From NCBI GenBank assembly GCA_029946045.1, contig JAQSDS010000393.1, positions 1 to 20,045 on the forward strand: 20,045 bases of DNA, given 5' to 3'. Shown piece by piece: positions 19 through 17,823 of this stretch. Position 1 is the stretch's first letter. Each line of letters begins with the position of its first letter. Under the pieces are notes generated by a model, which was not told the origin of the DNA, searched no databases, and worked only from the letters and a program-made list of their open reading frames with translations. The stretch is from Rhodoferax sp. (GTDB taxonomy: Bacteria > Pseudomonadota > Gammaproteobacteria > Burkholderiales > Burkholderiaceae_C). The position numbers and the translations under genes are program-made.

Positions 19-834
19 ATGTCGCTTCATAGCAATCCTGGCGCTGCACACGACAGCGGGAGCAAAAATGGGGTGCAGTCACTGGAAATCGGAATGTCGA
101 TTTTGCGTGCCATCAGCAGCGGCCATCGCGCCATGATGCTCAAAGACATTGCCGCTGCCACCGACATGCCCGCAAGCAAGGTTCACCGCTACATCGTCAG
201 TCTGGTGCGTTCTGGACTGGTAGAGCAAGATCCAATGACCTCGCGCTACGACCTGGGGCCGTTTGCCCTGAGCCTGGGGCTGGTAGCAGTGGACCGGCTG
301 GACCGAGTCAAGCTCGGCTTGCAAGCCATTGCAGAGTTGCGCGACGAGATCAACCAAACCACCGCGCTGGCGGTGTGGAGCGACACCGGCCCGGTCATCA
401 TCCGGTCGTTGCGCCCCTACCGCCCCATCACCGTCAACGTGGTAACGGGTAGCGCCTTGCAACTGCTCACCTCGGCCAGCGGTCGCGTATTTACCGCCTG
501 GCTGCCTCACAGCATCACCGAGGCGTTGATCGGTCGTGAACGCGCCACCCTTGCACTACCCCCTGAGTTGCAAAGGAGTACCGGGATCGAAGCCATGCTG
601 GCTCAGGTGCGCGAGGATGGCGTTTCAATCGTGCAGGACCACCATTTACTGCCCGGTGTGGCCGCCGCTGGCGCTCCAGTGTTCAACTTCAAACATGAAA
701 TCACCCTGTCGTTGCTGGCCATTGGCGTCAAAAGCATGATTGACCTGTCACCAGCCGGCAAAGTGGTCACGGCCTTGAAGCGCAGCGCTGAAGACCTGTC
801 TTTGCGCCTGGGTCACACTTTAGAAGCGAAATAG
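19..834 (+). CDS. IclR-family transcriptional regulator
   Basis: A DNA-binding regulator of the IclR family, 271 residues, the usual length. A winged helix-turn-helix lies at about residues 20-80 (LKDIAAATDMPASKVHRYI contains the HTH). It is followed by the IclR effector-binding domain at about 85-265. IclR proteins often control aromatic-acid catabolic genes by sensing a pathway intermediate, but the ligand cannot be read from this sequence. The ATG at 19 has an AGGTG eight bases upstream. The frame stays open to the window edge, so a start further upstream cannot be excluded. The gene points towards the paa operon at 4800 but is separated from it by the cassette array. Whether it controls that operon or something to the left is unknown. 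Confidence 0.9.
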   Translation: MSLHSNPGAAHDSGSKNGVQSLEIGMSILRAISSGHRAMMLKDIAAATDMPASKVHRYIVSLVRSGLVEQDPMTSRYDLGPFALSLGLVAVDRLDRVKLGLQAIAELRDEINQTTALAVWSDTGPVIIRSLRPYRPITVNVVTGSALQLLTSASGRVFTAWLPHSITEALIGRERATLALPPELQRSTGIEAMLAQVREDGVSIVQDHHLLPGVAAAGAPVFNFKHEITLSLLAIGVKSMIDLSPAGKVVTALKRSAEDLSLRLGHTLEAK

Positions 835-1391: not shown

Positions 1392-2162
1392 ATGCCCGTC
1401 ACCGGACTCTACATGGCCCACCGAGTACACCACTCGGCCATCCCGTATCAGAAGGCATTTGGCCAATACGTTATAGAAGACGTTGTGCCCGTCTTCTCCA
1501 ATTTGTCCGACAGAGCTAATGCAATTGCAGAACTGGAATTCAAACGTCTTGGCGAACAACCTGCCGGAGAGGACTGCGACGGCGATATGAGCGTCGCGGC
1601 AGAAGCTGCACAAGACAAAGGCCAAGTTTTCTACGACACGATGGTAGCTATTCGCCAAACGAGTTTGAACCTCTTTGCCGCTGGCCTGTTTCATATGCTT
1701 GAGCAGCAGTTGGCCGACCTCTGCCGGGACGGTGCTTTCGAGACAGCACCACTACGCGACACAAATCTCGGGATCGTGTCGGCCTGGTACCGAGATAATT
1801 TCAAGCTCGATCTATCCACCCTTTCCGCCTGGTCGAAGATCGAACAGCTTCGCTTACTTGCGAACTCGGTGAAGCATGGAGAAGGAAATTCAGCTGAACA
1901 GTTGCGCGCTATCCGTCCAGACCTATTTCAAAATCCAGATTTATCCGAATTCTTGCGAGATTTTCCTGGGATGTGTACCGCCCAGGCAGTGCGGCTACCG
2001 CTGGCAGGCGAAGATATTTTCGTTACCGCTGAGGTATTTTCGGAGTTCAGTGCGGCAGCGAATTCCTTGTTTGCTGAGATCGCCGATCATTTTGTCGCCC
2101 ATGAAGATGAGCACTATCTCGTGGGCGGCTCGGAACCAAAGGGGTCAGTGTCAGATGATTAA
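1392..2162 (+). CDS. cassette-associated hypothetical protein, 256 aa
   Basis: I do not recognise this protein. It is predicted mostly helical, acidic and soluble, with no signal peptide or membrane segment. Around residues 154-165 it has RLLANSVKHGEG, which resembles the asparagine-and-histidine helix seen in many HEPN-like and abortive-infection-type proteins. The R-to-H spacing is longer than the strict HEPN RNase motif, so this is only a hint. The ATG at 1392 follows the possible core site at 1365 by 21 bases. No strong Shine-Dalgarno is visible, so the start is uncertain (ATG at residue 8 is an alternative). The stop codon lies inside the GATTAAC box of the decayed attC candidate, as in intact cassettes. 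Confidence 0.65.
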   Translation: MPVTGLYMAHRVHHSAIPYQKAFGQYVIEDVVPVFSNLSDRANAIAELEFKRLGEQPAGEDCDGDMSVAAEAAQDKGQVFYDTMVAIRQTSLNLFAAGLFHMLEQQLADLCRDGAFETAPLRDTNLGIVSAWYRDNFKLDLSTLSAWSKIEQLRLLANSVKHGEGNSAEQLRAIRPDLFQNPDLSEFLRDFPGMCTAQAVRLPLAGEDIFVTAEVFSEFSAAANSLFAEIADHFVAHEDEHYLVGGSEPKGSVSDD

Positions 2163-4743: not shown

Positions 4744-4800
4744 ATGCTTAAATGTTTAACTAGTTCCGCATTTCGAAACTTCGCCGACGGAGTCCTCTGA
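4744..4800 (+). CDS. short leader ORF (18 aa) coupled to livH
   Basis: An ATG with an excellent ribosome site (AGGAGA, 4732-4737, six bases upstream) opens an 18-residue frame, MLKCLTSSAFRNFADGVL. It ends in TGA at 4798-4800, and the A of that stop is the first base of the livH ATG (TGATG). The livH gene also has its own GGAG (4789-4792) inside the leader frame. The arrangement suggests translational coupling or a regulatory leader peptide. It could also be the relic of a lost upstream gene. I recognise no domain, and the peptide has no run of identical regulatory codons as in amino-acid attenuators. Confidence 0.45.
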   Translation: MLKCLTSSAFRNFADGVL

Positions 4801-5675
4801 TGCTGGCCGAATTTCTGCAATTTTTGTTTTCCGGCATCACCGTGGGTGCCACCTACGCGCTGGCCGCGTTGGGCTTCACGCTGATCTACAACGCCAGCAA
4901 CGTCATCAACTTTGCGCAGGGTGAGTTCATCATGCTCGGCGGCATGCTGGCGGTGTATTTCTCCCAAGCCGGCCTGCCGCTTCCCGCGGCATTGGCGCTG
5001 GCGATTCTGGTGCCCGCCATCGTTGGCGTGGTGCTTGAAAAGCTGGCCATTGAGCCGGTCAAGGGTGCCGAACCGGTCACGCTGATCATCATCACCATCG
5101 GCGCGTCGCTGGTGATTCGCGGCCTGATCCAGGTCTGGCTGGGCAAGAACACCTTCAGCCTGCCTGCCTTCTCGGGCGATGTCCCTTTGCAAATTCTGGG
5201 TGCCACGCTGATGCCGCAAAGCCTGTGGGTGCTGGGCGTGACCGCCATCGTGGTGGTGGTGCTGTGGTACTTCTTTAACCGCACCTTGCACGGCAAGGCG
5301 ATGCTGGCCACGTCTTACAACCGGGTGGCCGCAGAGCTGGTCGGCATCAACACCAACTGGGTGCTGTTTTTGAGTTTTGCCATGTCGGCGGCGTTGGGCG
5401 CACTGGGCGGTATTTTGGTGACACCGCTCACGCTGACCTCTTATGACGTGGGCATCATGCTGGGGCTCAAGGGTTTTGTGGCGGCCGTGGTGGGTGGTTT
5501 GGGCAACGGCCTGGGCGCTGTGCTGGGCGGCTTGCTGGTGGGCATTCTGGAAGCCATGGGCGCTGGTTACATCTCGTCGGCCTACAAGGATGCGATGCCG
5601 TTTGTGCTGATCCTGCTGATTTTGTTCTTTATGCCGCGCGGCCTGTTTGGCGGCAAATCTACCGACCGGGTCTGA
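4800..5675 (+). CDS. livH: branched-chain-type ABC transporter permease (LivH family)
   Basis: Inner-membrane permease of a branched-chain amino-acid-type (HAAT) ABC importer, 291 residues, usual size. About eight hydrophobic segments are visible. The family's hallmark N-terminal region (GATYALAALGFTLIYNASNVINFAQGE, seen in parts) and the C-terminal GGLGNGLGAVLGGLLVG stretch, near the coupling region that contacts the ATPases, are present. It pairs with the LivM-type permease that follows two bases downstream. In aromatic-degradation operons such transporters usually carry aromatic acids rather than leucine; that substrate is inferred from the neighbours. No gene for the periplasmic binding protein lies in the window. 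The start is fixed by the overlap with the leader ORF and by GGAG at 4789. Confidence 0.93.
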   Translation: MLAEFLQFLFSGITVGATYALAALGFTLIYNASNVINFAQGEFIMLGGMLAVYFSQAGLPLPAALALAILVPAIVGVVLEKLAIEPVKGAEPVTLIIITIGASLVIRGLIQVWLGKNTFSLPAFSGDVPLQILGATLMPQSLWVLGVTAIVVVVLWYFFNRTLHGKAMLATSYNRVAAELVGINTNWVLFLSFAMSAALGALGGILVTPLTLTSYDVGIMLGLKGFVAAVVGGLGNGLGAVLGGLLVGILEAMGAGYISSAYKDAMPFVLILLILFFMPRGLFGGKSTDRV

Positions 5676-6612: not shown

Positions 6613-7374
6613 ATGGCCTTGCTTGAAGTCAAAGACCTGTCGATCCACTTTGGTGGTGTCAAGGCGGTACAAAACGTCAGTTTCACGATTGATGCCGGCA
6701 TTGTGTATGCGGTGATCGGCCCCAACGGCGCGGGCAAAACCACGCTGTTCAACCTGATCACCGGCATTTACACCCCAACCACGGGCAGCATCACGCTTGA
6801 CGGCGAATCCATCGGCGGCAAGTCGCCTGATGAGCTGGCCCGCCGGGGGGTGGCGCGCACCTTTCAAAACCTGCAAATCTGCATGAACATGAGCGCCATC
6901 GAGAACGTCATGGTGGGTGCGCACTTGCGGCTCGACCGCAACCTGCTCAAGGCCGCCCTGCGCTGGCCCTCGCTTAAAAAGCGTGACCGCGAGTTACACA
7001 CCGAAGCCGCTGAACTGATGCGATTTGTCGGGCTGGAGGGCTACATCAACGCACGTGCCGACAGCATGCCCTACGGCGCCCTCAAACGGCTGGAAATTGC
7101 CCGCGCCCTGGCCATGAAACCGCGCCTGATCTTTCTTGACGAACCCGCCGCCGGCCTGAACCCCAAGGAAACCATTGAGGTGGACCAGCTGGTGCGCAAG
7201 GTGGCCGACTCGGGCGTGACAGTGGTGCTGGTGGAGCACGACATGAAGATGGTGATGAACCTGTCAGACCGCATTTTGGTGCTGGACTACGGCAAGAAAC
7301 TGACCGAAGGCACCGGCGCTGAAGTGCGCCGCAACCCCGATGTGATTGCCGCCTACCTTGGCGCACACGCTTGA
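6613..7374 (+). CDS. livG: ABC transporter ATP-binding protein (LivG family)
   Basis: Cytoplasmic ATPase subunit of the importer, 253 residues. Walker A is GPNGAGKTT near residues 36-44, the Q-loop is in RTFQNLQ, Walker B is LIFLDEPAAGLNP, and the switch histidine is in LVEHDM. The signature region reads MPYGALKRLEIARAL, a variant of LSGGQ; LivG proteins commonly have a Y-G-type version here, so this is a family trait rather than a defect. The C-terminal PDVIAAYLG is the typical LivG ending. GGGGAG at 6600-6605, seven bases upstream, supports the ATG at 6613. It works with the fused LivF that follows. Confidence 0.93.
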   Translation: MALLEVKDLSIHFGGVKAVQNVSFTIDAGIVYAVIGPNGAGKTTLFNLITGIYTPTTGSITLDGESIGGKSPDELARRGVARTFQNLQICMNMSAIENVMVGAHLRLDRNLLKAALRWPSLKKRDRELHTEAAELMRFVGLEGYINARADSMPYGALKRLEIARALAMKPRLIFLDEPAAGLNPKETIEVDQLVRKVADSGVTVVLVEHDMKMVMNLSDRILVLDYGKKLTEGTGAEVRRNPDVIAAYLGAHA

Positions 7375-7388
7375 ACTCAAGGCACACC

Positions 7389-8705
7389 ATGGACGCACTT
7401 ACCCTTATCAGCCAGGACCACAGCAACCTGTGGCGCCTGGCCACCACTGTTGACCAAGTGGCTTCTGAAATTGAAGCCGGCGCACCCATCGAGCAGCCGT
7501 TTTTTAACGCCGTGTTTGACTACATCGAGCAGTTTGTAGACCGCTCACACCACCCCAAGGAAGACGACTATTTGTTTCGCCTGCTGCGCCTGCGCAGCGC
7601 CGAGGCGGCTGCCGTGCTCGACACCCTGCAAGTGGAGCACCGCGAAGGCCCGGCCAAGCTGGCGGCTTTGCGCGCCCAGGTGGCCGCAGCGGCTCAGGGC
7701 CAACTGGCGGGCGGCGAATTGGCCACGGCCTTGCGCGACTACACCACGGGCTTGAAAGCGCACATTCGTGCCGAAGAAAAAAGTGTCTTGCCGCTGGCCC
7801 GCAGCGCCTTGCTGGAGACCGATTGGGCCGAGCTCAACGCCGCATTTCTGAACAACAACGATCCGCTGTTTGGTGACAAGGCGCGCGAAGAGTTTCGCCA
7901 GCTTTACCACCGGGTGGCCAGCCTGGCACCCGAGTCGGTCGGTCTGGGGGGCCACAGTGTGGGCACGCTGCAACCCTTGCCAGACCGCGCCAAAGCCGAG
8001 GTGCAGTTGCGCGTGGAAGGCATGGAAAGCTGCTACGGCCGCATCAAGGCGCTCAAAGGCATCAGCCTGGAAGTGCGCCGGGGCGAAACCGTGGCCCTGG
8101 TGGGGGCCAATGGGGCGGGCAAAACCACGTTTTTGCGCACCTTGTCGGGCGTGCAGCCAATGAGCGCGGGCAGCATTCACTTCAAGGGTGAAGACATCAG
8201 CAAACTGCGCTCCGACAAACGCATGCGCCTTGGCATTTGCCAAAGCCCCGAAGGCCGCCAGGTGTTTGGCCCACTGTCGATTGAAGACAACCTGCGCCTG
8301 GGTGCCTACACGCAGCCACGTGACCAGGTGGAAGGCGACATGGAAAAAATCTTCACCATGTTCCCGATCCTGAAAGAAAAACGCGCGCTGCCCGCTGGCA
8401 CCTTGTCAGGCGGTCAACAGCAAATGCTGGCGATTGGCCGCGCCCTGATGGGCCGGCCCAGCCTGCTGCTGCTGGATGAGCCAAGCATGGGGCTGGCGCC
8501 GCTGCTGGTGGAAGAAGTGTTCAACGTGATCCGCATGCTCAAGAGCAAGGGCATGACGATTTTGCTGGTCGAGCAAAACGCCTTTGCCGCGCTGGCGATT
8601 GCCGACCGGGGTTATGTGCTGGAAACCGGCACGGTAACGCTCACCGGCACCGGCCAGGAACTCATCAGCAACGAACAGGTGCGCGCCGCGTACCTGGGTA
8701 TGTAA
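7389..8705 (+). CDS. livF: hemerythrin-domain / LivF ABC ATPase fusion
   Basis: A 438-residue fusion. Residues 1-180 form a four-helix hemerythrin-like domain with the expected iron ligands: His11, His54 and Glu58 (HxxxE), His84, and His125 and Glu129 (HxxxE). Residues about 205-438 are a complete LivF ATPase: Walker A GANGAGKT 239-246, SPEGRQVF in the Q-loop region, signature LSGGQ 339-343, Walker B LLLLDEP, and switch His-equivalent region LLVEQNA. A normal LivF is about 235 residues, so roughly 200 residues are added. Hemerythrin domains bind oxygen or sense redox or iron; linking one to a transporter ATPase suggests gating of uptake, which is inference. The ATG at 7389 has AAGG six bases upstream; an in-frame TTG at 7371 overlaps the livG stop but lacks support. 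Confidence 0.92.
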   Translation: MDALTLISQDHSNLWRLATTVDQVASEIEAGAPIEQPFFNAVFDYIEQFVDRSHHPKEDDYLFRLLRLRSAEAAAVLDTLQVEHREGPAKLAALRAQVAAAAQGQLAGGELATALRDYTTGLKAHIRAEEKSVLPLARSALLETDWAELNAAFLNNNDPLFGDKAREEFRQLYHRVASLAPESVGLGGHSVGTLQPLPDRAKAEVQLRVEGMESCYGRIKALKGISLEVRRGETVALVGANGAGKTTFLRTLSGVQPMSAGSIHFKGEDISKLRSDKRMRLGICQSPEGRQVFGPLSIEDNLRLGAYTQPRDQVEGDMEKIFTMFPILKEKRALPAGTLSGGQQQMLAIGRALMGRPSLLLLDEPSMGLAPLLVEEVFNVIRMLKSKGMTILLVEQNAFAALAIADRGYVLETGTVTLTGTGQELISNEQVRAAYLGM

Positions 8706-9824: not shown

Positions 9825-11498
9825 ATGTTAAGCACTTACCAATATCCAAAATTCGATTACGTCCGCCCGCCCGAACAGAGCGGCGTGCCAGCAAAACGCT
9901 ACCCGGTGGTGGTCGTGGGCGCTGGCCCGGTGGGTCTGGCCGCAGCCATTGAACTGGCGCAGTCGGGCGTTGCGGTGGTGGTGCTCGACGATGATGACAC
10001 CGTGTCGGTGGGCTCGCGTGGTGTGTGTTACGCCAAGCGCACCCTTGAAGTGCTGGACCGCCTGGGCCTGGGCGAGCCATGCATGGACAAGGGTGTGAGC
10101 TGGAACGTGGGCCGCACATTTTTCCGCGAGCAAGAGGTGTACAACTTCAACCTGTTGCCGCAAACCGACCACAAACGCCCGGGCATGATCAACCTGCAGC
10201 AGTATTACCTGGAAGAGTTCGAGGTGACACGCGCCAAGGAGCTGCCCAACCTGGACTTGCGCTTCAAGAACAAGGTGGTGTCGGTGACACCGCAGGGTAA
10301 TGGCGCGACGTTGCAGGTTGAAACGCCCGACGGCATTTATTCCCTGGAGACCGATTGGCTGGTGGTGGCCGATGGTGCCCGCAGTGGCATTCGGCGCATG
10401 ATGAATCTGGACATTGACGGCAAGATTTTCAAAGACCGTTTTCTGATTGCCGACGTGGTCATGAAGGCTGATTTTCCGCACGAGCGCTGGTTCTGGTTTG
10501 ATCCGCCGTTTCACCCCGGTCAATCGGTGCTGCTGCACCGCCAGGCCGACAACGTGTACCGCATCGACTTTCAACTCGGCTGGGACGCCGACCCCGAAGA
10601 AGAAAAGAAGCCCGAGAAGGTGATTCCGCGCATCAAGGCCATGCTGGGTGACGAGCGTGAGTTTGAACTGGAATGGGTCAGCGTCTACACCTTCCAGTGC
10701 CGCCGCATGAACGCCTTCACCCACGGCCACGTGTTGTTTGTGGGCGACGCCGCGCACCAGGTGTCACCGTTTGGCGCGCGCGGTGCCAACTCCGGCATTC
10801 AGGACACCGACAACCTGTGCTGGAAACTCAAGCTGGTGATTGAGGGCAAGGCCCCGCCAGCCTTGCTTGACACCTATTCTGAAGAGCGGGTGTTTGCCGC
10901 CGAAGAAAACCTGCTCAACTCCACCCGCTCCACCGACTTCATCACGCCAAAAAGCAAAACCTCGCTGACCTTTCGCAACGCGGTGCTGAGCCTGGCGCGC
11001 GAGCATGCGTTTGCCCGCGCATTGGTCAATTCAGGGCGTTTATCGGTGCCGAGCTTCCTGACCGAGTCAGGCCTGAACACACCCGATGACGGCAGTTTCG
11101 CCGGCGACATGGTGCCCGGCGCGGCGATGGACGATGCACCCATGCAGGTGCAGGGCCAGGCGGCCTGGCTGCTTGACCAGGTGGGTAAACAATTCATGCT
11201 GCTGGTGTACGTGCTTGATGGCGCATCAAGCGACGCCGACCTGCTGGCCAGCTTCAAGGCCGTGGCGAGTGGGCCAATGGCACCTGAAGTGGTGCTGGTG
11301 GCAGCCAAAGCCAGCACGGCGCCGAATGGTCTGCGGGTGCTGGAAGACCGCGCGGGGCGCTTTGCCGAGCGCTTTGACGCCACGCCCGGCACCACCTACC
11401 TGATCCGTCCAGACCAGCATGTGGCAGCGCGCTGGCGCAGTTTTGATGCCGAGCAGGTCCGCCTGGCTATTGCCCGCGCCACCTGTAACCTTCAATAA
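9825..11498 (+). CDS. FAD-dependent aromatic monooxygenase (MhpA-like, class A)
   Basis: A flavoprotein hydroxylase of 557 residues. The FAD-binding Rossmann motif GAGPVG is at 32-37, the DG motif (ADGARSGIRR) around Asp183, and the GD motif (VGDAAHQVSPFGARG) at Gly307-Asp308. A C-terminal thioredoxin-like domain, as in phenol hydroxylase and MhpA, fits residues about 410-557. Such enzymes use NAD(P)H and O2 to add a hydroxyl to an activated aromatic ring. The substrate is not readable; a hydroxylated phenylacetate or benzoate is plausible from context. I chose ATG 9825, with GAG seven bases upstream. An in-frame TTG at 9789 would start next to the T-tract of the repeat and lacks a ribosome site. 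The DUF2783-like gene follows at once. Confidence 0.9.
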   Translation: MLSTYQYPKFDYVRPPEQSGVPAKRYPVVVVGAGPVGLAAAIELAQSGVAVVVLDDDDTVSVGSRGVCYAKRTLEVLDRLGLGEPCMDKGVSWNVGRTFFREQEVYNFNLLPQTDHKRPGMINLQQYYLEEFEVTRAKELPNLDLRFKNKVVSVTPQGNGATLQVETPDGIYSLETDWLVVADGARSGIRRMMNLDIDGKIFKDRFLIADVVMKADFPHERWFWFDPPFHPGQSVLLHRQADNVYRIDFQLGWDADPEEEKKPEKVIPRIKAMLGDEREFELEWVSVYTFQCRRMNAFTHGHVLFVGDAAHQVSPFGARGANSGIQDTDNLCWKLKLVIEGKAPPALLDTYSEERVFAAEENLLNSTRSTDFITPKSKTSLTFRNAVLSLAREHAFARALVNSGRLSVPSFLTESGLNTPDDGSFAGDMVPGAAMDDAPMQVQGQAAWLLDQVGKQFMLLVYVLDGASSDADLLASFKAVASGPMAPEVVLVAAKASTAPNGLRVLEDRAGRFAERFDATPGTTYLIRPDQHVAARWRSFDAEQVRLAIARATCNLQ

Positions 11499-11508
11499 GG
11501 AGCCCTTG

Positions 11509-11733
11509 ATGCCACTTAACCTGCAACCCAACTTCAACGAGTCCGGCAAGCGCTACTTTCGCGCGTTCACCCCGGGCGACGACTTTTACGAAGCCCTGAT
11601 TGACACGCATCGTGACCTGACCGACGAACAAAGCGCCATGGTCAACGCCAAACTGGTGCTGCTGCTGGCCAACCACGTGGGCGACATCAGCGTGCTGCGC
11701 CAAGCCATGCAAATTGCCCGCAACGAATCTTGA
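11509..11733 (+). CDS. small protein, DUF2783-like, 74 aa
   Basis: A small, probably helical soluble protein (LTDEQSAMVNAKLVLLLANH and DISVLRQAMQIAR helices). It resembles the DUF2783 family, short proteins often encoded beside FAD monooxygenases; this assignment is from memory of the family pattern. AAGGAG (11497-11502), which overlaps the stop of the monooxygenase gene, lies six bases before the ATG, so translation is efficient and probably coupled. Its fixed place between hydroxylase and VOC genes suggests a partner or stabilising subunit of the monooxygenase, which is inference. Confidence 0.8.
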   Translation: MPLNLQPNFNESGKRYFRAFTPGDDFYEALIDTHRDLTDEQSAMVNAKLVLLLANHVGDISVLRQAMQIARNES

Positions 11734-11744
11734 TCGGAACTCCC

Positions 11745-12284
11745 ATGCAAATCCAGAAAATCCACCATGTAGCCTACCGCTGCAAAGATGCCAAACAAAC
11801 CGTGGAGTGGTACGGCAAGTACCTCAACATGGCCTTCATCCTGGCGATTGCCGAAAACGAAGTGCCGTCCACCAAAGAGCCCGACCCCTACATGCACGTG
11901 TTTCTGGACGCCGGTGGTGGCAATGTGTTGGCGTTTTTTGAGCTGCCGACCAAGCCCGAGATGGGCCGCGACGAGAACACCCCGGCCTGGACGCAACACC
12001 TGGCCATGCAAGTCGCCACGGTGGACGAGCTGCTGGAAACCAAGGCCAAACTCGAAGCCGATGGCATTGAGGTGGTGGGCCCCACCGACCACACCATCTT
12101 CAAATCCATCTACTTCTTTGACCCCAGCGGCCACCGGCTGGAACTCGCCGCCAACACCGGCACACCAAAAATGGCCAAAATGCTCGACGAAGCCAAGTGG
12201 GACATGCTCAATGAATGGGCCGTGACCAAAAAAGCCCCACAGCACGCCCGCTGGATGCACGACGGCTCTTTTGCCGGGGAATAA
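11745..12284 (+). CDS. VOC-superfamily protein (glyoxalase/extradiol dioxygenase fold)
   Basis: A 179-residue single-module VOC protein with paired beta-alpha-beta-beta-beta repeats. The expected metal ligands are visible: His8 (IHHVAY), His85 (TQHLAMQV) and Glu133 (GHRLELAANTG), a 2-His-1-Glu set as in type I extradiol dioxygenases and related isomerases. It is shorter than classical two-domain extradiol dioxygenases of about 300 residues, so ring cleavage is possible but not proven; a glyoxalase-like isomerase or lyase is the alternative. The ATG at 11745 has GGA seven bases upstream, and the preceding gene stops 11 bases before. Its position between the monooxygenase and the FAH gene suits a ring-cleavage or isomerisation step. 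Confidence 0.88.
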   Translation: MQIQKIHHVAYRCKDAKQTVEWYGKYLNMAFILAIAENEVPSTKEPDPYMHVFLDAGGGNVLAFFELPTKPEMGRDENTPAWTQHLAMQVATVDELLETKAKLEADGIEVVGPTDHTIFKSIYFFDPSGHRLELAANTGTPKMAKMLDEAKWDMLNEWAVTKKAPQHARWMHDGSFAGE

Positions 12285-12287
12285 GCC

Positions 12288-13304
12288 ATGAAACTTGCCA
12301 CACTCAAACAAGGCGGACGCGACGGCACTCTGGTGGTGGTCAACCGCGCGTTGACCCATTGCCGCGCCGTGCCAGCCATTGCCCGTACCTTGCAAGCCGC
12401 GCTGGACGACTGGGAGACGTGTGAACCGCAGTTGCGCCAGGTCTATGAAGCTCTCAACAGTGGCGCCTTCAGCAACCCCGATGCGTTTGACCCGGCCGCC
12501 TGCCACTCACCGCTGCCGCGCGCCTACCAATGGGCCGATGGCTCGGCCTATGTCAACCATGTGGAGCTGGTGCGCCGCGCCCGTGGTGCCGAGTTGCCCG
12601 CTGAATTCTGGACCGACCCCTTGATGTACCAGGGCGGCTCGGACGCGTTTGTCGGCCCACGTGACCCGGTGCGCGCCCTCTCGGTGGACTGGGGCATCGA
12701 CCTGGAAGCCGAGGTGGCCGTGGTCACTGGCGACGTGAACATGGGCAGCAACGCGGCAGCCGCCGCCAAATCGGTGCGCCTGCTGATGCTGGTCAACGAC
12801 GTGTCACTGCGCAACCTGATCCCGGCGGAGTTGGCCAAGGGATTTGGCTTCTTCCAGTCCAAACCCGCGTCAGCCTTCAGCCCGGTGGCGGTCACGCCCG
12901 ACGAGCTGGGTGCCCACTGGGTGGACAGCCGGGTGCAACGGCCTTTGACCGTGCATTTGAACGGCGCCTTGTTTGGCCAGCCCGACGCGGGGCAAGACAT
13001 GGTCTTCAACTTTGCACAACTGATTGCCCATGCGGCCAAAACGCGTGAGCTGCGCGCGGGTTCCATCATCGGTTCCGGCACGGTATCGAACAAGCAGGGC
13101 GGGTTGTATGGCTCGTCAGTGGCGCACGGCGGGGTCGGTTATGCCTGCATTGCCGAGGTGCGCATGTACGAAACCATTGAGACCGGCAAACCGCAAACGC
13201 CCTACATGCAGTTCGGTGACAGCGTGCGCATTGAGATGTTGGACGCGCAAGGTGCGTCGATCTTTGGCGCAATCGACCAAACGGTGCAAGCCTATGCAGG
13301 CTAA
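12288..13304 (+). CDS. fumarylacetoacetate hydrolase family protein
   Basis: A 338-residue FAH-fold enzyme, the length of the two-domain proteobacterial fumarylacetoacetases that accompany homogentisate pathways. The catalytic metal residues appear as Glu140 and Glu142 (DLEAEVAVV) and Asp171 (LVNDVSLRN). KGFGFFQSKP and the late GSGTVSNK segment are also typical. Such enzymes hydrolyse C-C bonds of fumarylacetoacetate or fumarylpyruvate-like ring-cleavage products. No homogentisate dioxygenase (cupin) is in the window, so its substrate here could be a different acylpyruvate-type product. The ATG at 12288 follows the VOC stop by three bases with GGGGA upstream. Confidence in family is high, in exact reaction moderate. 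Confidence 0.9.
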   Translation: MKLATLKQGGRDGTLVVVNRALTHCRAVPAIARTLQAALDDWETCEPQLRQVYEALNSGAFSNPDAFDPAACHSPLPRAYQWADGSAYVNHVELVRRARGAELPAEFWTDPLMYQGGSDAFVGPRDPVRALSVDWGIDLEAEVAVVTGDVNMGSNAAAAAKSVRLLMLVNDVSLRNLIPAELAKGFGFFQSKPASAFSPVAVTPDELGAHWVDSRVQRPLTVHLNGALFGQPDAGQDMVFNFAQLIAHAAKTRELRAGSIIGSGTVSNKQGGLYGSSVAHGGVGYACIAEVRMYETIETGKPQTPYMQFGDSVRIEMLDAQGASIFGAIDQTVQAYAG

Positions 13305-15041: not shown

Positions 15042-15833
15042 ATGACTTACCAGAACATTCGTTTTGAAGCCCAGGACGGCATTGCCCGCCTGACGCTCAA
15101 CCGCCCCGACAAACTCAACAGCTTTACCGGCGCCATGCATGTGGAGTTGCGCGGCGCGCTGGACACCGTGCAACACGACAAAACCATTCGCGTGCTGGTG
15201 CTCACGGGTGCAGGCCGTGCATTTTGCGCGGGACAAGACCTGGCCGACCCCGAGATGGCCATGGGCCCGCTGCAGCCTGACATTGGCCATGTGGTGGAGC
15301 AAAACTACAAGCCGCTGATTCTGGCGCTGCAAAACCTGCGTGTGCCTACGGTGGCCATGGTGAATGGCATTGCGGCCGGCGCCGGAGCCAGTCTGGCGCT
15401 GGCCTGTGACCTGGTGATTGCCGCCAAATCCGCCTCGTTTTTGCAGGCGTTCAGTAAAATCGGCCTGATTCCGGACACCGGTGGCACCTGGTTTTTGCCG
15501 CAGCGTGTGGGCATGGCGCGCGCGCTTGGCCTGGCCATGCTGGCTGACAAATTACCGGCTGAAAAAGCCGAAGCGTGGGGCCTGATCTGGCAGGCAGTGG
15601 ATGACGCTGAACTCGCGTCAACCGTGGACAAACTGGCGGCGCAGCTGGCGCAAATGCCCACCCGTGCGCTGGTTGCCACCCGGCTGGCCATGCACGCCGC
15701 GCCCAACCACACCCTGGAACAACAGCTGGGTTTTGAAGCCGGCTTCATGCGCGAGCTGGGCTGGCGCGACGACTTCAAGGAAGGCGTGGCGGCTTTCCAG
15801 CAAAAACGCGCACCCAAATTCACCGGCAACTGA
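15042..15833 (+). CDS. paaG: ring-1,2-epoxyphenylacetyl-CoA isomerase PaaG
   Basis: A 263-residue crotonase-fold enzyme. The oxyanion-hole segments are AFCAGQDL (residues 60-67) and GIAAGAGASLALACD (109-123). The catalytic aspartate is Asp145 in LIPDTGG, as expected for PaaG and delta-isomerases, in place of the glutamate used by true hydratases. It converts the ring epoxide of phenylacetyl-CoA to oxepin-CoA and also isomerises a later double bond. It starts eight bases after paaN and is followed five bases later by paaH, so the genes are co-transcribed. The sequence is intact. Confidence 0.93.
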   Translation: MTYQNIRFEAQDGIARLTLNRPDKLNSFTGAMHVELRGALDTVQHDKTIRVLVLTGAGRAFCAGQDLADPEMAMGPLQPDIGHVVEQNYKPLILALQNLRVPTVAMVNGIAAGAGASLALACDLVIAAKSASFLQAFSKIGLIPDTGGTWFLPQRVGMARALGLAMLADKLPAEKAEAWGLIWQAVDDAELASTVDKLAAQLAQMPTRALVATRLAMHAAPNHTLEQQLGFEAGFMRELGWRDDFKEGVAAFQQKRAPKFTGN

Positions 15834-15838
15834 TCACC

Positions 15839-17362
15839 ATGACACAAGCGCTCTCTTCACAAGCCGTGATCGCCGTCATAGGCGCTGGCGCCATGGGTGC
15901 CGGTATTGCCCAGGTGGCCGCCGCCGCGGGTCACACGGTCAAGCTGCTCGACAACCGCCCCGGCGCTGCTGCCCAGGCGATTGCGGGTATTTGTGCCCAG
16001 TTTGAAAAAATGGCAGCCAAAGGCAAGCTGAGCCCGCAAGCGTCCAAGGATGCCGGCGCGCGCTTGCTGGCTGCCGGGCACATCGCTGATTTGTCCGATG
16101 CGGCCCTGGTGGTGGAAGCCATTGTGGAAAATCTGCAGGTCAAGCAAACACTGTTCAAAGACCTGGAAGCCGTGGTGTCTGAGGGCTGCATTCTGGCCAG
16201 CAACACCTCGTCGATTTCCATCACTGCCATTGGCGCCGCGCTCAAACACCCGCAGCGTCTGGCTGGCTTGCACTTCTTCAACCCGGCGCCGCTGATGGCG
16301 CTGGTCGAGGTGGTGTCAGGTCTGGCCACCCACCAGGACGTCGCCGACACCCTGTTTGCCACGGCTGCGGCCTGGGGCAAGACCCCGGTGCAGGCCAAAT
16401 CCACGCCGGGCTTCATCGTCAACCGGGTGGCGCGCCCGTATTACGCCGAAGCCTTGCGCGTGCTCAATGAAGGCGGTGCCGATTGCGCCACGCTGGATGC
16501 CGTGATGCGCGAGGCCGGTGGTTTTCGCATGGGGCCGTTTGAGCTGATGGACATGATTGGCCACGACGTGAACTTTGCCGTGACCAACTCGGTGTGGCGC
16601 GCCTTTTTCAACGACCCGCGCTTTTTGCCTTCGTTGATTCAGCAAGACCTGGTGGATGCCGGCTTTCTGGGCAGGAAGTCTGGCCGGGGGTTTTTTGACT
16701 ACAGCGCCAGCGCCGTCAAGCCGTTGCCGGCCACCGCGCCAGAGCAGGTTCAACCCAAAGACATCGTGGTGTACGGGCAATCAGCGGTCGCCCAAGCCCT
16801 GGCAAAGCGCCTGCAAACCAACCAGGTCAGCTTCACCCAGGCCGCCGCCGACGGTGACGCCTTGGCAAGTGCGGGCGGCGCCACTTTGCGCGTGACCGAC
16901 GGCCGCACCGCCACGCGCTGCGCCGTTGACACCCATCTGCCCAACACCGTGCTGATCGACTTGGCGCTGGACTACCAGACCGCCACCCGGCTGGCTGTGA
17001 GCGTGGCCGCCCACTGTGACAGCGCAGCCGCCAACAGCGCCATGGGCTTGCTGCAGGCGGCAGGCTTTGCCGTGTCGCAGTTGCAAGACATCCCCGGCCT
17101 GATCGTGATGCGCACCGTGGCCATGCTGGCCAACGAAGCGGCTGATGCTGTCAACCAGGGCGTGTGTGACACCGCTGCCGTCGACACCGCCATGCGCCTG
17201 GGTGTCAATTACCCCTGCGGCCCGCTGGCCTGGGCCAACGCCATAGGTATCGACAAGCTCAGCACCGTGCTTGCGCATCTGGCGCAAACCTATGGCGAAG
17301 ACCGCTACCGCACCTCGCCCCTGATTCAACACCAACTTTACGCCGCAAAGGTCTTTTCATGA
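15839..17362 (+). CDS. paaH: 3-hydroxyacyl-CoA dehydrogenase PaaH
   Basis: A 507-residue NAD-dependent dehydrogenase. The Rossmann motif is GAGAMG at 15-20, and the catalytic histidine is His145 in HFFNP, followed by PLMALVEVV. A first C-terminal 3HCDH domain (about 190-285) and a second, after a linker (about 405-500), make the long form typical of PaaH. It oxidises 3-hydroxyadipyl-CoA to 3-oxoadipyl-CoA in the phenylacetate route. The ATG lies five bases after paaG. Its stop overlaps the paaI start (ATGA), so the two are translationally coupled. Confidence 0.93.
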   Translation: MTQALSSQAVIAVIGAGAMGAGIAQVAAAAGHTVKLLDNRPGAAAQAIAGICAQFEKMAAKGKLSPQASKDAGARLLAAGHIADLSDAALVVEAIVENLQVKQTLFKDLEAVVSEGCILASNTSSISITAIGAALKHPQRLAGLHFFNPAPLMALVEVVSGLATHQDVADTLFATAAAWGKTPVQAKSTPGFIVNRVARPYYAEALRVLNEGGADCATLDAVMREAGGFRMGPFELMDMIGHDVNFAVTNSVWRAFFNDPRFLPSLIQQDLVDAGFLGRKSGRGFFDYSASAVKPLPATAPEQVQPKDIVVYGQSAVAQALAKRLQTNQVSFTQAAADGDALASAGGATLRVTDGRTATRCAVDTHLPNTVLIDLALDYQTATRLAVSVAAHCDSAAANSAMGLLQAAGFAVSQLQDIPGLIVMRTVAMLANEAADAVNQGVCDTAAVDTAMRLGVNYPCGPLAWANAIGIDKLSTVLAHLAQTYGEDRYRTSPLIQHQLYAAKVFS

Positions 17363-17823
17363 CGGATTCATACGCCAACCCACAAGAACTGGCCGATGCC
17401 GTGACACAGGCCATGTGGTCGCGCGACCGCGCCACGCAAGGCCTGGGCATACAAGCGCTCAGTGTCAAACCCGGCTACGCCATGTTTGCCATGCCGGTGC
17501 GCAGCGACATGGTCAACGGCCATCACATCTGCCACGGCGGCTTCATCTTCATGCTGGCCGACAGTACCTTTGCCTTTGCCTGCAACAGCTACAACCAGAA
17601 CACCGTGGCGTCGAGCTGCAACATTGACTTTCTGGCGCCAGCGCACGAGGGTGACGTGCTGGAAGCCGAAGCGGTGGAGCGCTCGCTGTCTGGCCGCACC
17701 GGGGTGTATGACATCACGGTGCGCACCCGCAGTGGCAAGACCGTGGCGCTGTTTCGCGGCAAAAGTTACCGCATCAAAGGTGAGGTCATCGCCGGCTTGC
17801 AGCAGACCGATGCCGCCACCTGA
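17359..17823 (+). CDS. paaI: hotdog-fold thioesterase PaaI
   Basis: A 154-residue hotdog-fold acyl-CoA thioesterase. The signature is His59-Gly-Gly followed by FIFMLAD with the catalytic Asp68. The length matches the family. PaaI hydrolyses phenylacetyl-CoA derivatives that would otherwise trap CoA, acting as a safety valve for the pathway. The start overlaps the end of paaH by four bases. A 42-base gap with AT-rich sequence precedes paaK. Confidence 0.93.
   Translation: MTDSYANPQELADAVTQAMWSRDRATQGLGIQALSVKPGYAMFAMPVRSDMVNGHHICHGGFIFMLADSTFAFACNSYNQNTVASSCNIDFLAPAHEGDVLEAEAVERSLSGRTGVYDITVRTRSGKTVALFRGKSYRIKGEVIAGLQQTDAAT

What the first reader, a model, noticed from the sequence alone, without database searches (positions are those of the whole stretch)
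7389..8705. Hemerythrin di-iron domain fused to a LivF transporter ATPase
All expected hemerythrin ligands (His11, His54, Glu58, His84, His125, Glu129) precede a complete ATPase. The operon feeds oxygen-dependent enzymes: an FAD monooxygenase here and the PaaABCDE epoxidase that the pathway requires. A di-iron domain on the import motor suggests oxygen- or redox-gated uptake of the aromatic substrate, a form of transporter control I do not know to be described.
Basis: partly seen in the sequence, partly recalled or inferred. Interest (0 to 1): 0.75.

Follow-up and report, generated by a model that had tools for sequence, protein, structure and literature searches.

The report
Di-iron sensor-like domain on phenylacetate importer
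The motor protein of a bacterial importer, most likely for the aromatic acid phenylacetate, carries an extra predicted iron-binding domain resembling known iron and redox sensors; the combination is real and conserved in many bacteria, but whether the domain switches the importer on or off is untested.

Summary
Window 7389-8705 encodes one 438-aa protein: an HHE-type hemerythrin-like domain (PF01814, aa 4-137), a conserved extension and a complete LivF-type ABC ATPase. It is no local accident: 76 of the 80 named loci kept show the same in-frame fusion. Fused Hr domains group together (97/94), suggesting one origin; LivF's tree suggests later losses. All six ligands survive in 84 of 88 fused sequences. 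The motif is H-HxxxE-H-HxxxE, as in plant BTS proteins, not that of oxygen-carrying hemerythrin. Of 32 standalone relatives examined, 9 directly follow a LivF gene and 7 lie near benzoate enzyme BoxB. Best reading: a phenylacetate importer with a di-iron redox/O2/iron-responsive regulatory domain. Architecture near certain; gating inferred (0.45). Eight full-text searches showed no description of the fusion.

The parts
7389..7799 (+). HHE-type hemerythrin-like domain, aa 1-137; ligand codons H11 7419-7421, H54 7548-7550, E58 7560-7562, H84 7638-7640, H125 7761-7763, E129 7773-7775
   Evidence: PF01814 E=2.9e-17; conserved ligands; helical bundle model, mean pLDDT 92
7800..7949 (+). conserved C-terminal extension of the Hr domain (DWxEIDxAFxxNxDPLFG...LAPxPxGLG), aa 138-187, two more helices
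   Evidence: shared by fused and standalone relatives; helices 143-153 and 163-179
7950..8000 (+). linker, aa 188-204, least conserved and predicted disordered
   Evidence: pLDDT under 50 at aa 178-201; mean conservation 0.54 at aa 191-205 against 0.69-0.89 elsewhere
8001..8705 (+). LivF-type ABC ATPase domain with all nucleotide-binding motifs, aa 205-438 plus stop
4800..5675 (+). LivH-type permease
   Evidence: PF02653
5678..6610 (+). LivM-type permease
   Evidence: PF02653
6613..7374 (+). LivG-type ATPase
   Evidence: PF00005 and PF12399; LivG model is the best hit, below its cut-off (286 of 362 bits)
19..834 (+). IclR-family regulator
   Evidence: PF09339, PF01614
8727..9692 (+). metallo-beta-lactamase-fold hydrolase
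   Evidence: PF00753
9825..11498 (+). FAD monooxygenase (PRK08132 subfamily)
   Evidence: NF006002 851.3 bits, cut-off 416
11506..11733 (+). DUF2783 protein
   Evidence: PF10932
11745..12284 (+). VOC-fold (glyoxalase/dioxygenase) protein
   Evidence: PF00903
12288..13304 (+). fumarylacetoacetate-hydrolase-family protein
   Evidence: PF01557, PF18288
13366..15033 (+). PaaN
   Evidence: TIGR02288 902.6 bits over cut-off
15042..15833 (+). PaaG
   Evidence: TIGR02280 358.3 bits over cut-off
15839..17362 (+). PaaH
   Evidence: TIGR02279 683.7 bits over cut-off
17359..17823 (+). PaaI-like thioesterase (name by place; family is 4HBT)
   Evidence: PF03061
17866..19191 (+). PaaK phenylacetate-CoA ligase
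   Evidence: TIGR02155 707.1 bits over cut-off

Best explanation
The gene encodes the LivF-type ATPase of a HAAT (LivKHMGF-type) importer, most likely for phenylacetate, with an N-terminal di-iron hemerythrin-like domain on a flexible linker. I propose that the domain is a regulatory sensor: its di-iron site is loaded and oxidised or reduced according to cell iron, O2 or redox state, and the change is passed to the ATPase or to LivG/LivM, setting import to what catabolism can handle. Shown by sequence: the fusion, its conservation, the intact site, and the link with phenylacetate genes of both aerobic and anaerobic routes. Inferred: metal binding, the signal, the coupling, and its sign (on or off).
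For: 76 of 80 named loci fused in frame. Fused Hr rows are one side of a branch, 97/94. Hr dN/dS 0.075-0.298 in 12 pairs. All six ligands in 84 of 88 fused, 10 of 10 after-LivF and 7 of 7 box-linked sequences. Standalone relatives directly follow LivF in 9 of 32 genes examined in family f21, and in the own genome on C173: the same pairing in trans, with LivFs of separate lineages. [quoted passage not shown] FBXL5 is their mammalian parallel (PMC12022348, passages). Phenylacetate as substrate: PaaK and paa genes here; a paa gene at 50% identity or more in 48 of 76 fused loci, some cut short by contig ends; pad genes with PaaK in G750. The two-domain model has a disordered linker and pTM 0.53, which suggests no fixed docking.
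Against: No measurement of metal, O2 or ATPase. The domain is dispensable: G108, sister of fused G184 (100/98 in the LivF tree), has the LivF at 87% identity without it and keeps PaaA. In four fused sequences of two lineages (L070; L125-L127) the site has decayed while the fusion stays. Oxygen-dependent partners are not universal, and PaaA is commoner with unfused LivF (6 of 9) than with fused (4 of 13 in the order, plus 3 of 3 in another order); a fused transporter lies in an anaerobic operon. narG is not enriched in fused genomes (1 of 8 against 24 of 83). 14 of the 32 standalone genes have neither LivF or LivH directly beside them nor BoxB nearby.
Confidence: 0.45

Rival explanations
1. Local protection: the domain is a membrane-tethered O2, peroxide or NO scavenger or oxygen store that guards the entry point of aromatic catabolism and does not control transport.
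For: The authors of PMC6449761 proposed oxygen store/scavenger or protection for the standalone COG3945 HHE protein in benzoate clusters (passages). A mycobacterial hemerythrin-like protein is a nitric oxide peroxidase (PMC8913304, passages). The standalone copies near BoxB (7 of 32) need no transporter contact.
Against: It does not explain why the domain is covalently on the ATPase, or why standalone copies sit directly behind LivF (9 of 32). A stoichiometric tethered domain is a poor scavenger (inference).
Confidence: 0.2
2. Iron handling: the domain stores, delivers or repairs iron for the di-iron oxygenases of the pathways (PaaA, BoxB, perhaps the AurF-like protein), in the manner of RIC/YtfE.
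For: YtfE is among the solved relatives found by sequence. Hr genes lie near BoxB; PaaA or the AurF-like protein occurs in 13 of 16 fused genomes examined.
Against: G132, G719 and G750 are fused but show neither PaaA nor the AurF-like protein. The domain is on an import ATPase rather than on an oxygenase.
Confidence: 0.15
3. Structural or assembly domain: the helical bundle stabilises the LivF-LivG-permease complex or docks a catabolic enzyme (such as PaaK), and metal binding is incidental.
For: Fusion persists where the site has decayed (L070; L125-L127). The C-terminal extension is more conserved than the bundle (0.77 against 0.69). PaaK adjoins the transporter genes in G132, G719 and G750.
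Against: All six ligands kept in 84 of 88 fused sequences although the Hr domain as a whole is less conserved than LivF (higher dN/dS in 11 of 12 pairs).
Confidence: 0.15

Closest known systems
[quoted passage not shown]
   Same: a hemerythrin-like domain on the ATP-driven component of a transporter; role there called unclear (O2/redox or iron sensing) in PMC9388753 section 8
   Different: P-type metal pump, domain at the C-terminus, motif H-HxxxE-HxE-HxxxxD; here an ABC importer ATPase, domain at the N-terminus, motif H-HxxxE-H-HxxxE
Standalone COG3945 HHE protein of betaproteobacterial benzoate clusters
   Same: HHE protein in clusters that can also hold a benzoate ABC transporter (PMC6449761, passages). 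The Hr relatives found here, some near BoxB, look like the same group, but COG membership was not tested
   Different: separate gene; role left open there; the fusion to LivF is not mentioned in the passages read
FBXL5 and BTS/HRZ hemerythrin-like sensor domains
   Different: effector is a ubiquitin ligase; BTS has three Hr-like sequences
DcrH, Bhr-DGC, Bhr-HD-GYP bacterial hemerythrin sensors
   Same: Hr domain regulating a fused output domain (PMC9388753)
   Different: canonical seven-ligand site, which is not met here
ABC ATPases with added regulatory domains (MalK, MetN, OpuA CBS)
   Same: control of import through a domain added to the ATPase (recalled, from no call)
   Different: none of these is a di-iron domain (recalled, from no call)

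Membership tests
HHE-type hemerythrin-like domain (PF01814 / IPR012312) | Pfam score over gathering cut-off | tested here: met
   63.8 bits, cut-off 25.3
HHE-type hemerythrin-like domain (PF01814 / IPR012312) | di-iron motif H-HxxxE-H-HxxxE | tested here: met
   H11, H54xxxE58, H84, H125xxxE129; motif given in PMC12022348
HHE-type hemerythrin-like domain (PF01814 / IPR012312) | four-helix bundle fold | tested here: met
HHE-type hemerythrin-like domain (PF01814 / IPR012312) | binds two irons | not testable with these tools
   needs purified protein
Canonical O2-binding bacterial hemerythrin | motif H-HxxxE-HxxxH-HxxxxD (PMC9388753) | tested here: not met
   residue 88 is Pro, residue 130 is Glu
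HAAT (LivKHMGF-type) importer ATPase | ABC ATPase with all nucleotide-binding motifs | tested here: met
   PF00005; motifs
HAAT (LivKHMGF-type) importer ATPase | operon with two BPD_transp_2 permeases and a LivG-type ATPase | tested here: met
   same order in related loci
HAAT (LivKHMGF-type) importer ATPase | periplasmic binding protein (LivK) | tested here: inconclusive
   none recognised among the window proteins scanned; a gene 82% identical to the LivK of L084 is on own-genome contig C49 near PaaA; L084's LivK has PF13458
E. coli-type LivF equivalog (NF008626) | score over curated cut-off | tested here: not met
   267.1 bits, cut-off 441: a LivF-type ATPase, not an E. coli LivF equivalog
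P1B-5 ATPase | P-type ATPase with C-terminal Hr, motif H-HxxxE-HxE-HxxxxD | tested here: not met
   ABC ATPase, N-terminal Hr, no Asp at position 130

The most novel reading that the evidence does not exclude
A new mode of ABC importer control: a di-iron hemerythrin-like domain fused to (or encoded with) the LivF ATPase gates uptake of aromatic acids by redox, O2 or iron state. The fused protein would be a 'Rosetta stone' explaining the HHE proteins of unknown role in HAAT and benzoate clusters: they would act in trans on the LivF subunit.
Probability: 0.4. Interest if true: 0.78.

Novelty: new variant of a known kind. Interest (0 to 1): 0.62.

Why it matters
It gives a testable protein family in which a di-iron site is built into an ABC import motor, with natural controls at hand: an ortholog without the domain (G108), two lineages whose site decayed, and in-trans versions. 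If gating is shown, it links oxygen, redox or iron status directly to uptake of aromatic carbon, and offers a function for HHE proteins of benzoate clusters whose role is left open in PMC6449761.

Tried and rejected
Chimera or annotation artefact: rejected, 76 of 80 loci fused. In-frame start codons in the linker are not conserved (none in L088, L101 or L104).

Clean rule 'fused = aerobic, unfused = anaerobic': LivF orthologs beside PadB in G103, G102 and G179 are unfused, as is the PadC-linked one in G083; G741 has LivF beside PadB and no Hr match in its genome. The rule fails with G750, fused in a pad operon, and with unfused but paa- or FAD-monooxygenase-linked or PaaA-linked G108, G118, G075 and G299. 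In the LivF-based sample 7 of 16 genomes are fused.

Facultative anaerobes marked by narG: not enriched (1 of 8 against 24 of 83).

The full-length structure searches listed only the ATPase in their top rows; the Hr domain had to be folded alone. Foldseek gave it no match under E 0.001 (best 2p0n, E 0.065); fold support is from VIA-align and the sequence profile.

Gene calling by longest open frame in G+C-rich loci gave many antisense artefacts; for adjacency I used tblastn with labelled references instead (on), so adjacency depends on those references. The 32 standalone genes of family f21 are 32 of the 60 standalone matches: ranks 9-44 less four skipped (G067, G701 C94, G673 C58, G698 C69); lower ranks were not fetched. 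The 80 named loci are the best 80 of 417 relatives, found with patterns from fused sequences, so their fused share says nothing about how common fusion is.

In a draft I wrote that two Hr genes precede LivK; the gene between Hr and LivH in L156 has no family match and that in L166 was not examined, so I now say only that a LivH-like gene lies beyond it.

Literature: eight searches (some listings capped) showed no title or abstract describing an Hr-LivF fusion. PMC5866928, a hemerythrin superfamily paper, is not held. PMC4919030's architecture table is a figure and was not seen (passages). Seen: PMC9388753 outline and sections 3, 8, 9; PMC6449761, PMC12022348, PMC8913304 and PMC4919030 passages only.

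Full report
The observation. The frame 7389-8705 on the plus strand is one uninterrupted gene of 438 codons, ATG start, following LivG (stop at 7374) with AAGG shortly before the start. Pfam finds Hemerythrin (aa 4-137, E=2.9e-17) and ABC_tran (aa 222-366, E=4.5e-30). The pattern H11, H54xxxE58, H84, H125xxxE129 is the HHE-class motif H-HxxxE-H-HxxxE (PMC12022348, passages). It is not the motif H-HxxxE-HxxxH-HxxxxD given for oxygen-carrying hemerythrins and bacterial hemerythrin sensors such as DcrH (PMC9388753).

Not an accident. A search with the Hr part returned 341 proteins at E up to 0.001 among 7996 scored candidates; of the 120 listed, 119 carry both PF01814 and PF00005. A scan of named genomes confirmed 417 relatives and kept the best 80; 76 of these have the in-frame fusion. 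The other four are L086 (contig ends inside the gene), L102 and L105 (standalone Hr) and L107 (two standalone Hr genes some 3 kb from a HAAT operon). LivG, LivM and LivH precede the fusion as far as the contigs reach; hosts include Rhodoferax, Polaromonas, Azonexus, Dechloromonas, Zoogloea, Castellaniella, Malikia, Brachymonas, Arhodomonas and Marinobacterium. In sampled whole genomes the fusion is uncommon: 7 of 300 in the order, own genome included, and 8 of 91 in family f21 (six close matches with open frames of 441-696 aa; plus G719 and G750). Three genomes of one genus in another order of the class (G368, G433, G467) also have it.

History. In the Hr tree all 43 fused rows lie on one side of a branch (97/94, 96% of bootstrap trees), next to standalone proteins of Roseospira and Rhodospira. 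Fused rows from L029-L095 were thinned to one in three before both trees. In the LivF tree, fused and unfused orthologs share one clade (98/93) with unfused members nested inside, most clearly G108 beside G184 (100/98); that tree has many unresolved forks and some long branches. One fusion with later losses is the simplest reading.

Constraint. dN/dS of the Hr part is 0.075-0.298 in 12 pairs, of LivF 0.023-0.174; Hr is higher in 11 of 12. The Hr part is thus under purifying selection, mostly less strict than LivF. All six ligands are kept in 84 of 88 distinct fused sequences. The exceptions are L070 (three of six changed) and L125-L127 (two of six changed). Standalone relatives keep them in 10 of 10 after-LivF, 7 of 7 box-linked and 51 of 52 other sequences.

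The association in trans. The own genome has a second relative, 193 aa, 39% identical, directly behind another LivG-LivF pair on contig C173. In family f21, 32 of the 60 standalone genes were examined with about 7 kb on each side where contigs allow. Nine directly follow LivF (L153, L157, L159, L160, L161, L163, L165, L172, L177). Two have a LivH-like gene about 1.5 kb downstream on the same strand (L156, L166); in L156 the gene on the other side is benzoate-CoA ligase. Seven lie near BoxB (L155, L156, L158, L166, L167, L168, L175). Fourteen show none of these, though in one (L181) a HAAT operon lies 3 kb away. If 2.5% of genes lay directly behind a LivF, nine or more of 32 would have a chance of 6e-8; the 2.5% is my own generous guess and the loci are not independent. 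The LivFs concerned come from separate lineages. The authors of PMC6449761 noted an HHE protein (COG3945) in benzoate clusters, some with a benzoate ABC transporter, and called its role not clear (passages).

Substrate. PaaK, PaaN, PaaG and PaaH in the window score over their curated cut-offs. A paa gene at 50% identity or more is found in 48 of 76 fused loci, and a paa, FAD-monooxygenase, MBL or AurF-like gene in 57 of 76; some loci are short. The own genome has PaaA and a LivK-like gene together on contig C49. In G750 PadB, PadC, PadG, PadI, PaaK, LivH, LivM, LivG, [Hr-LivF] and LivK follow one another on one strand, with a few unlabelled frames between (PadG 784.7 and PadI 834.9 bits, cut-off 700). 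PadB and PadC are my labels for a molybdopterin protein and its Fe-S partner, by family and context. Phenylacetate is the shared entry compound of both routes (recalled), so it is the most likely substrate. The FAD monooxygenase/DUF2783/VOC/FAH set may handle a related aromatic.

Oxygen. PaaA is present in 4 of 13 fused genomes of the order (G000, G184, G218, G702), in 3 of 3 of the other-order genus, and in 6 of 9 genomes with an unfused ortholog: PaaA does not go with fusion. An AurF-like protein is present in 7 of the 13 and in 0 of 9 unfused. Neither is found in G132, G719 or G750. No PadB or PadC was found in the 76 fused named loci, but G719 and G750 have PadB. The operon therefore often, not always, accompanies an oxygen-dependent step. 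narG is not enriched.

Mechanism. The most economical account is a di-iron regulatory domain on the import motor. The evidence is the intact site, fusion to the ATPase, the same pairing in trans, and the sensor roles of related domains. The rivals are local protection, iron handling and assembly. Decayed sites and a domain-free ortholog show that the transporter can persist without the site, as expected for a regulatory part and also for an accessory one. Whether oxygen opens or closes import is unknown; the anaerobic operon of G750 argues against a fixed 'open in oxygen' rule.

Comparison. The nearest architectural precedent found is the P1B-5 ATPase with a C-terminal Hr domain, whose role is also unsettled (PMC9388753 section 8). 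Eight full-text searches showed no description of an Hr-LivF fusion. I rate it a new variant of a known kind: hemerythrin-like domains on effectors are known, regulatory domains on ABC ATPases are known (recalled), and this pairing was not found in print.

Noticed in passing
L085:4109-5137 and L095:3017-4081; 25 of 80 loci: An AurF/rubrerythrin-like protein (342 aa, weak Pfam matches below cut-off) is in 25 of 80 loci, 20 times within 3 kb upstream of LivH, often with a 2Fe-2S/FAD reductase gene (28 of 80). In 13 fused genomes it is nearly complementary to PaaA (7 against 4, both only in G218): a candidate alternative oxygenase for phenylacetyl-CoA.
   Followed up: partly
L003 (G000 C428): The own genome also fuses a related Hr domain to the C-terminus of a universal stress protein (342 aa; PF00582 plus PF01814).
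   Followed up: no
L005 (G000 C431) and L007 (G000 C144): Two proteins of 478 and 473 aa with a GGEEF (diguanylate-cyclase-like) motif and a C-terminal Hr match, resembling Bhr-DGC sensors.
   Followed up: no
L070 and L125-L127: Fusions whose di-iron site has decayed while the frame stays open; natural controls.
   Followed up: partly
L198 (G108 C56): LivF 87% identical without the Hr domain, next to paa genes, sister of fused G184; natural control.
   Followed up: partly
   Followed up: partly
window 9825-13304: FAD monooxygenase, DUF2783, VOC and FAH genes recur as a set next to the transporter (FAD monooxygenase in 22 of 80 loci, 21 of them with the MBL-fold gene); substrate unknown.
   Followed up: no
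window 1392-2162 and 2251-2757: Two open frames of 256 and 168 aa without any Pfam match.
   Followed up: no
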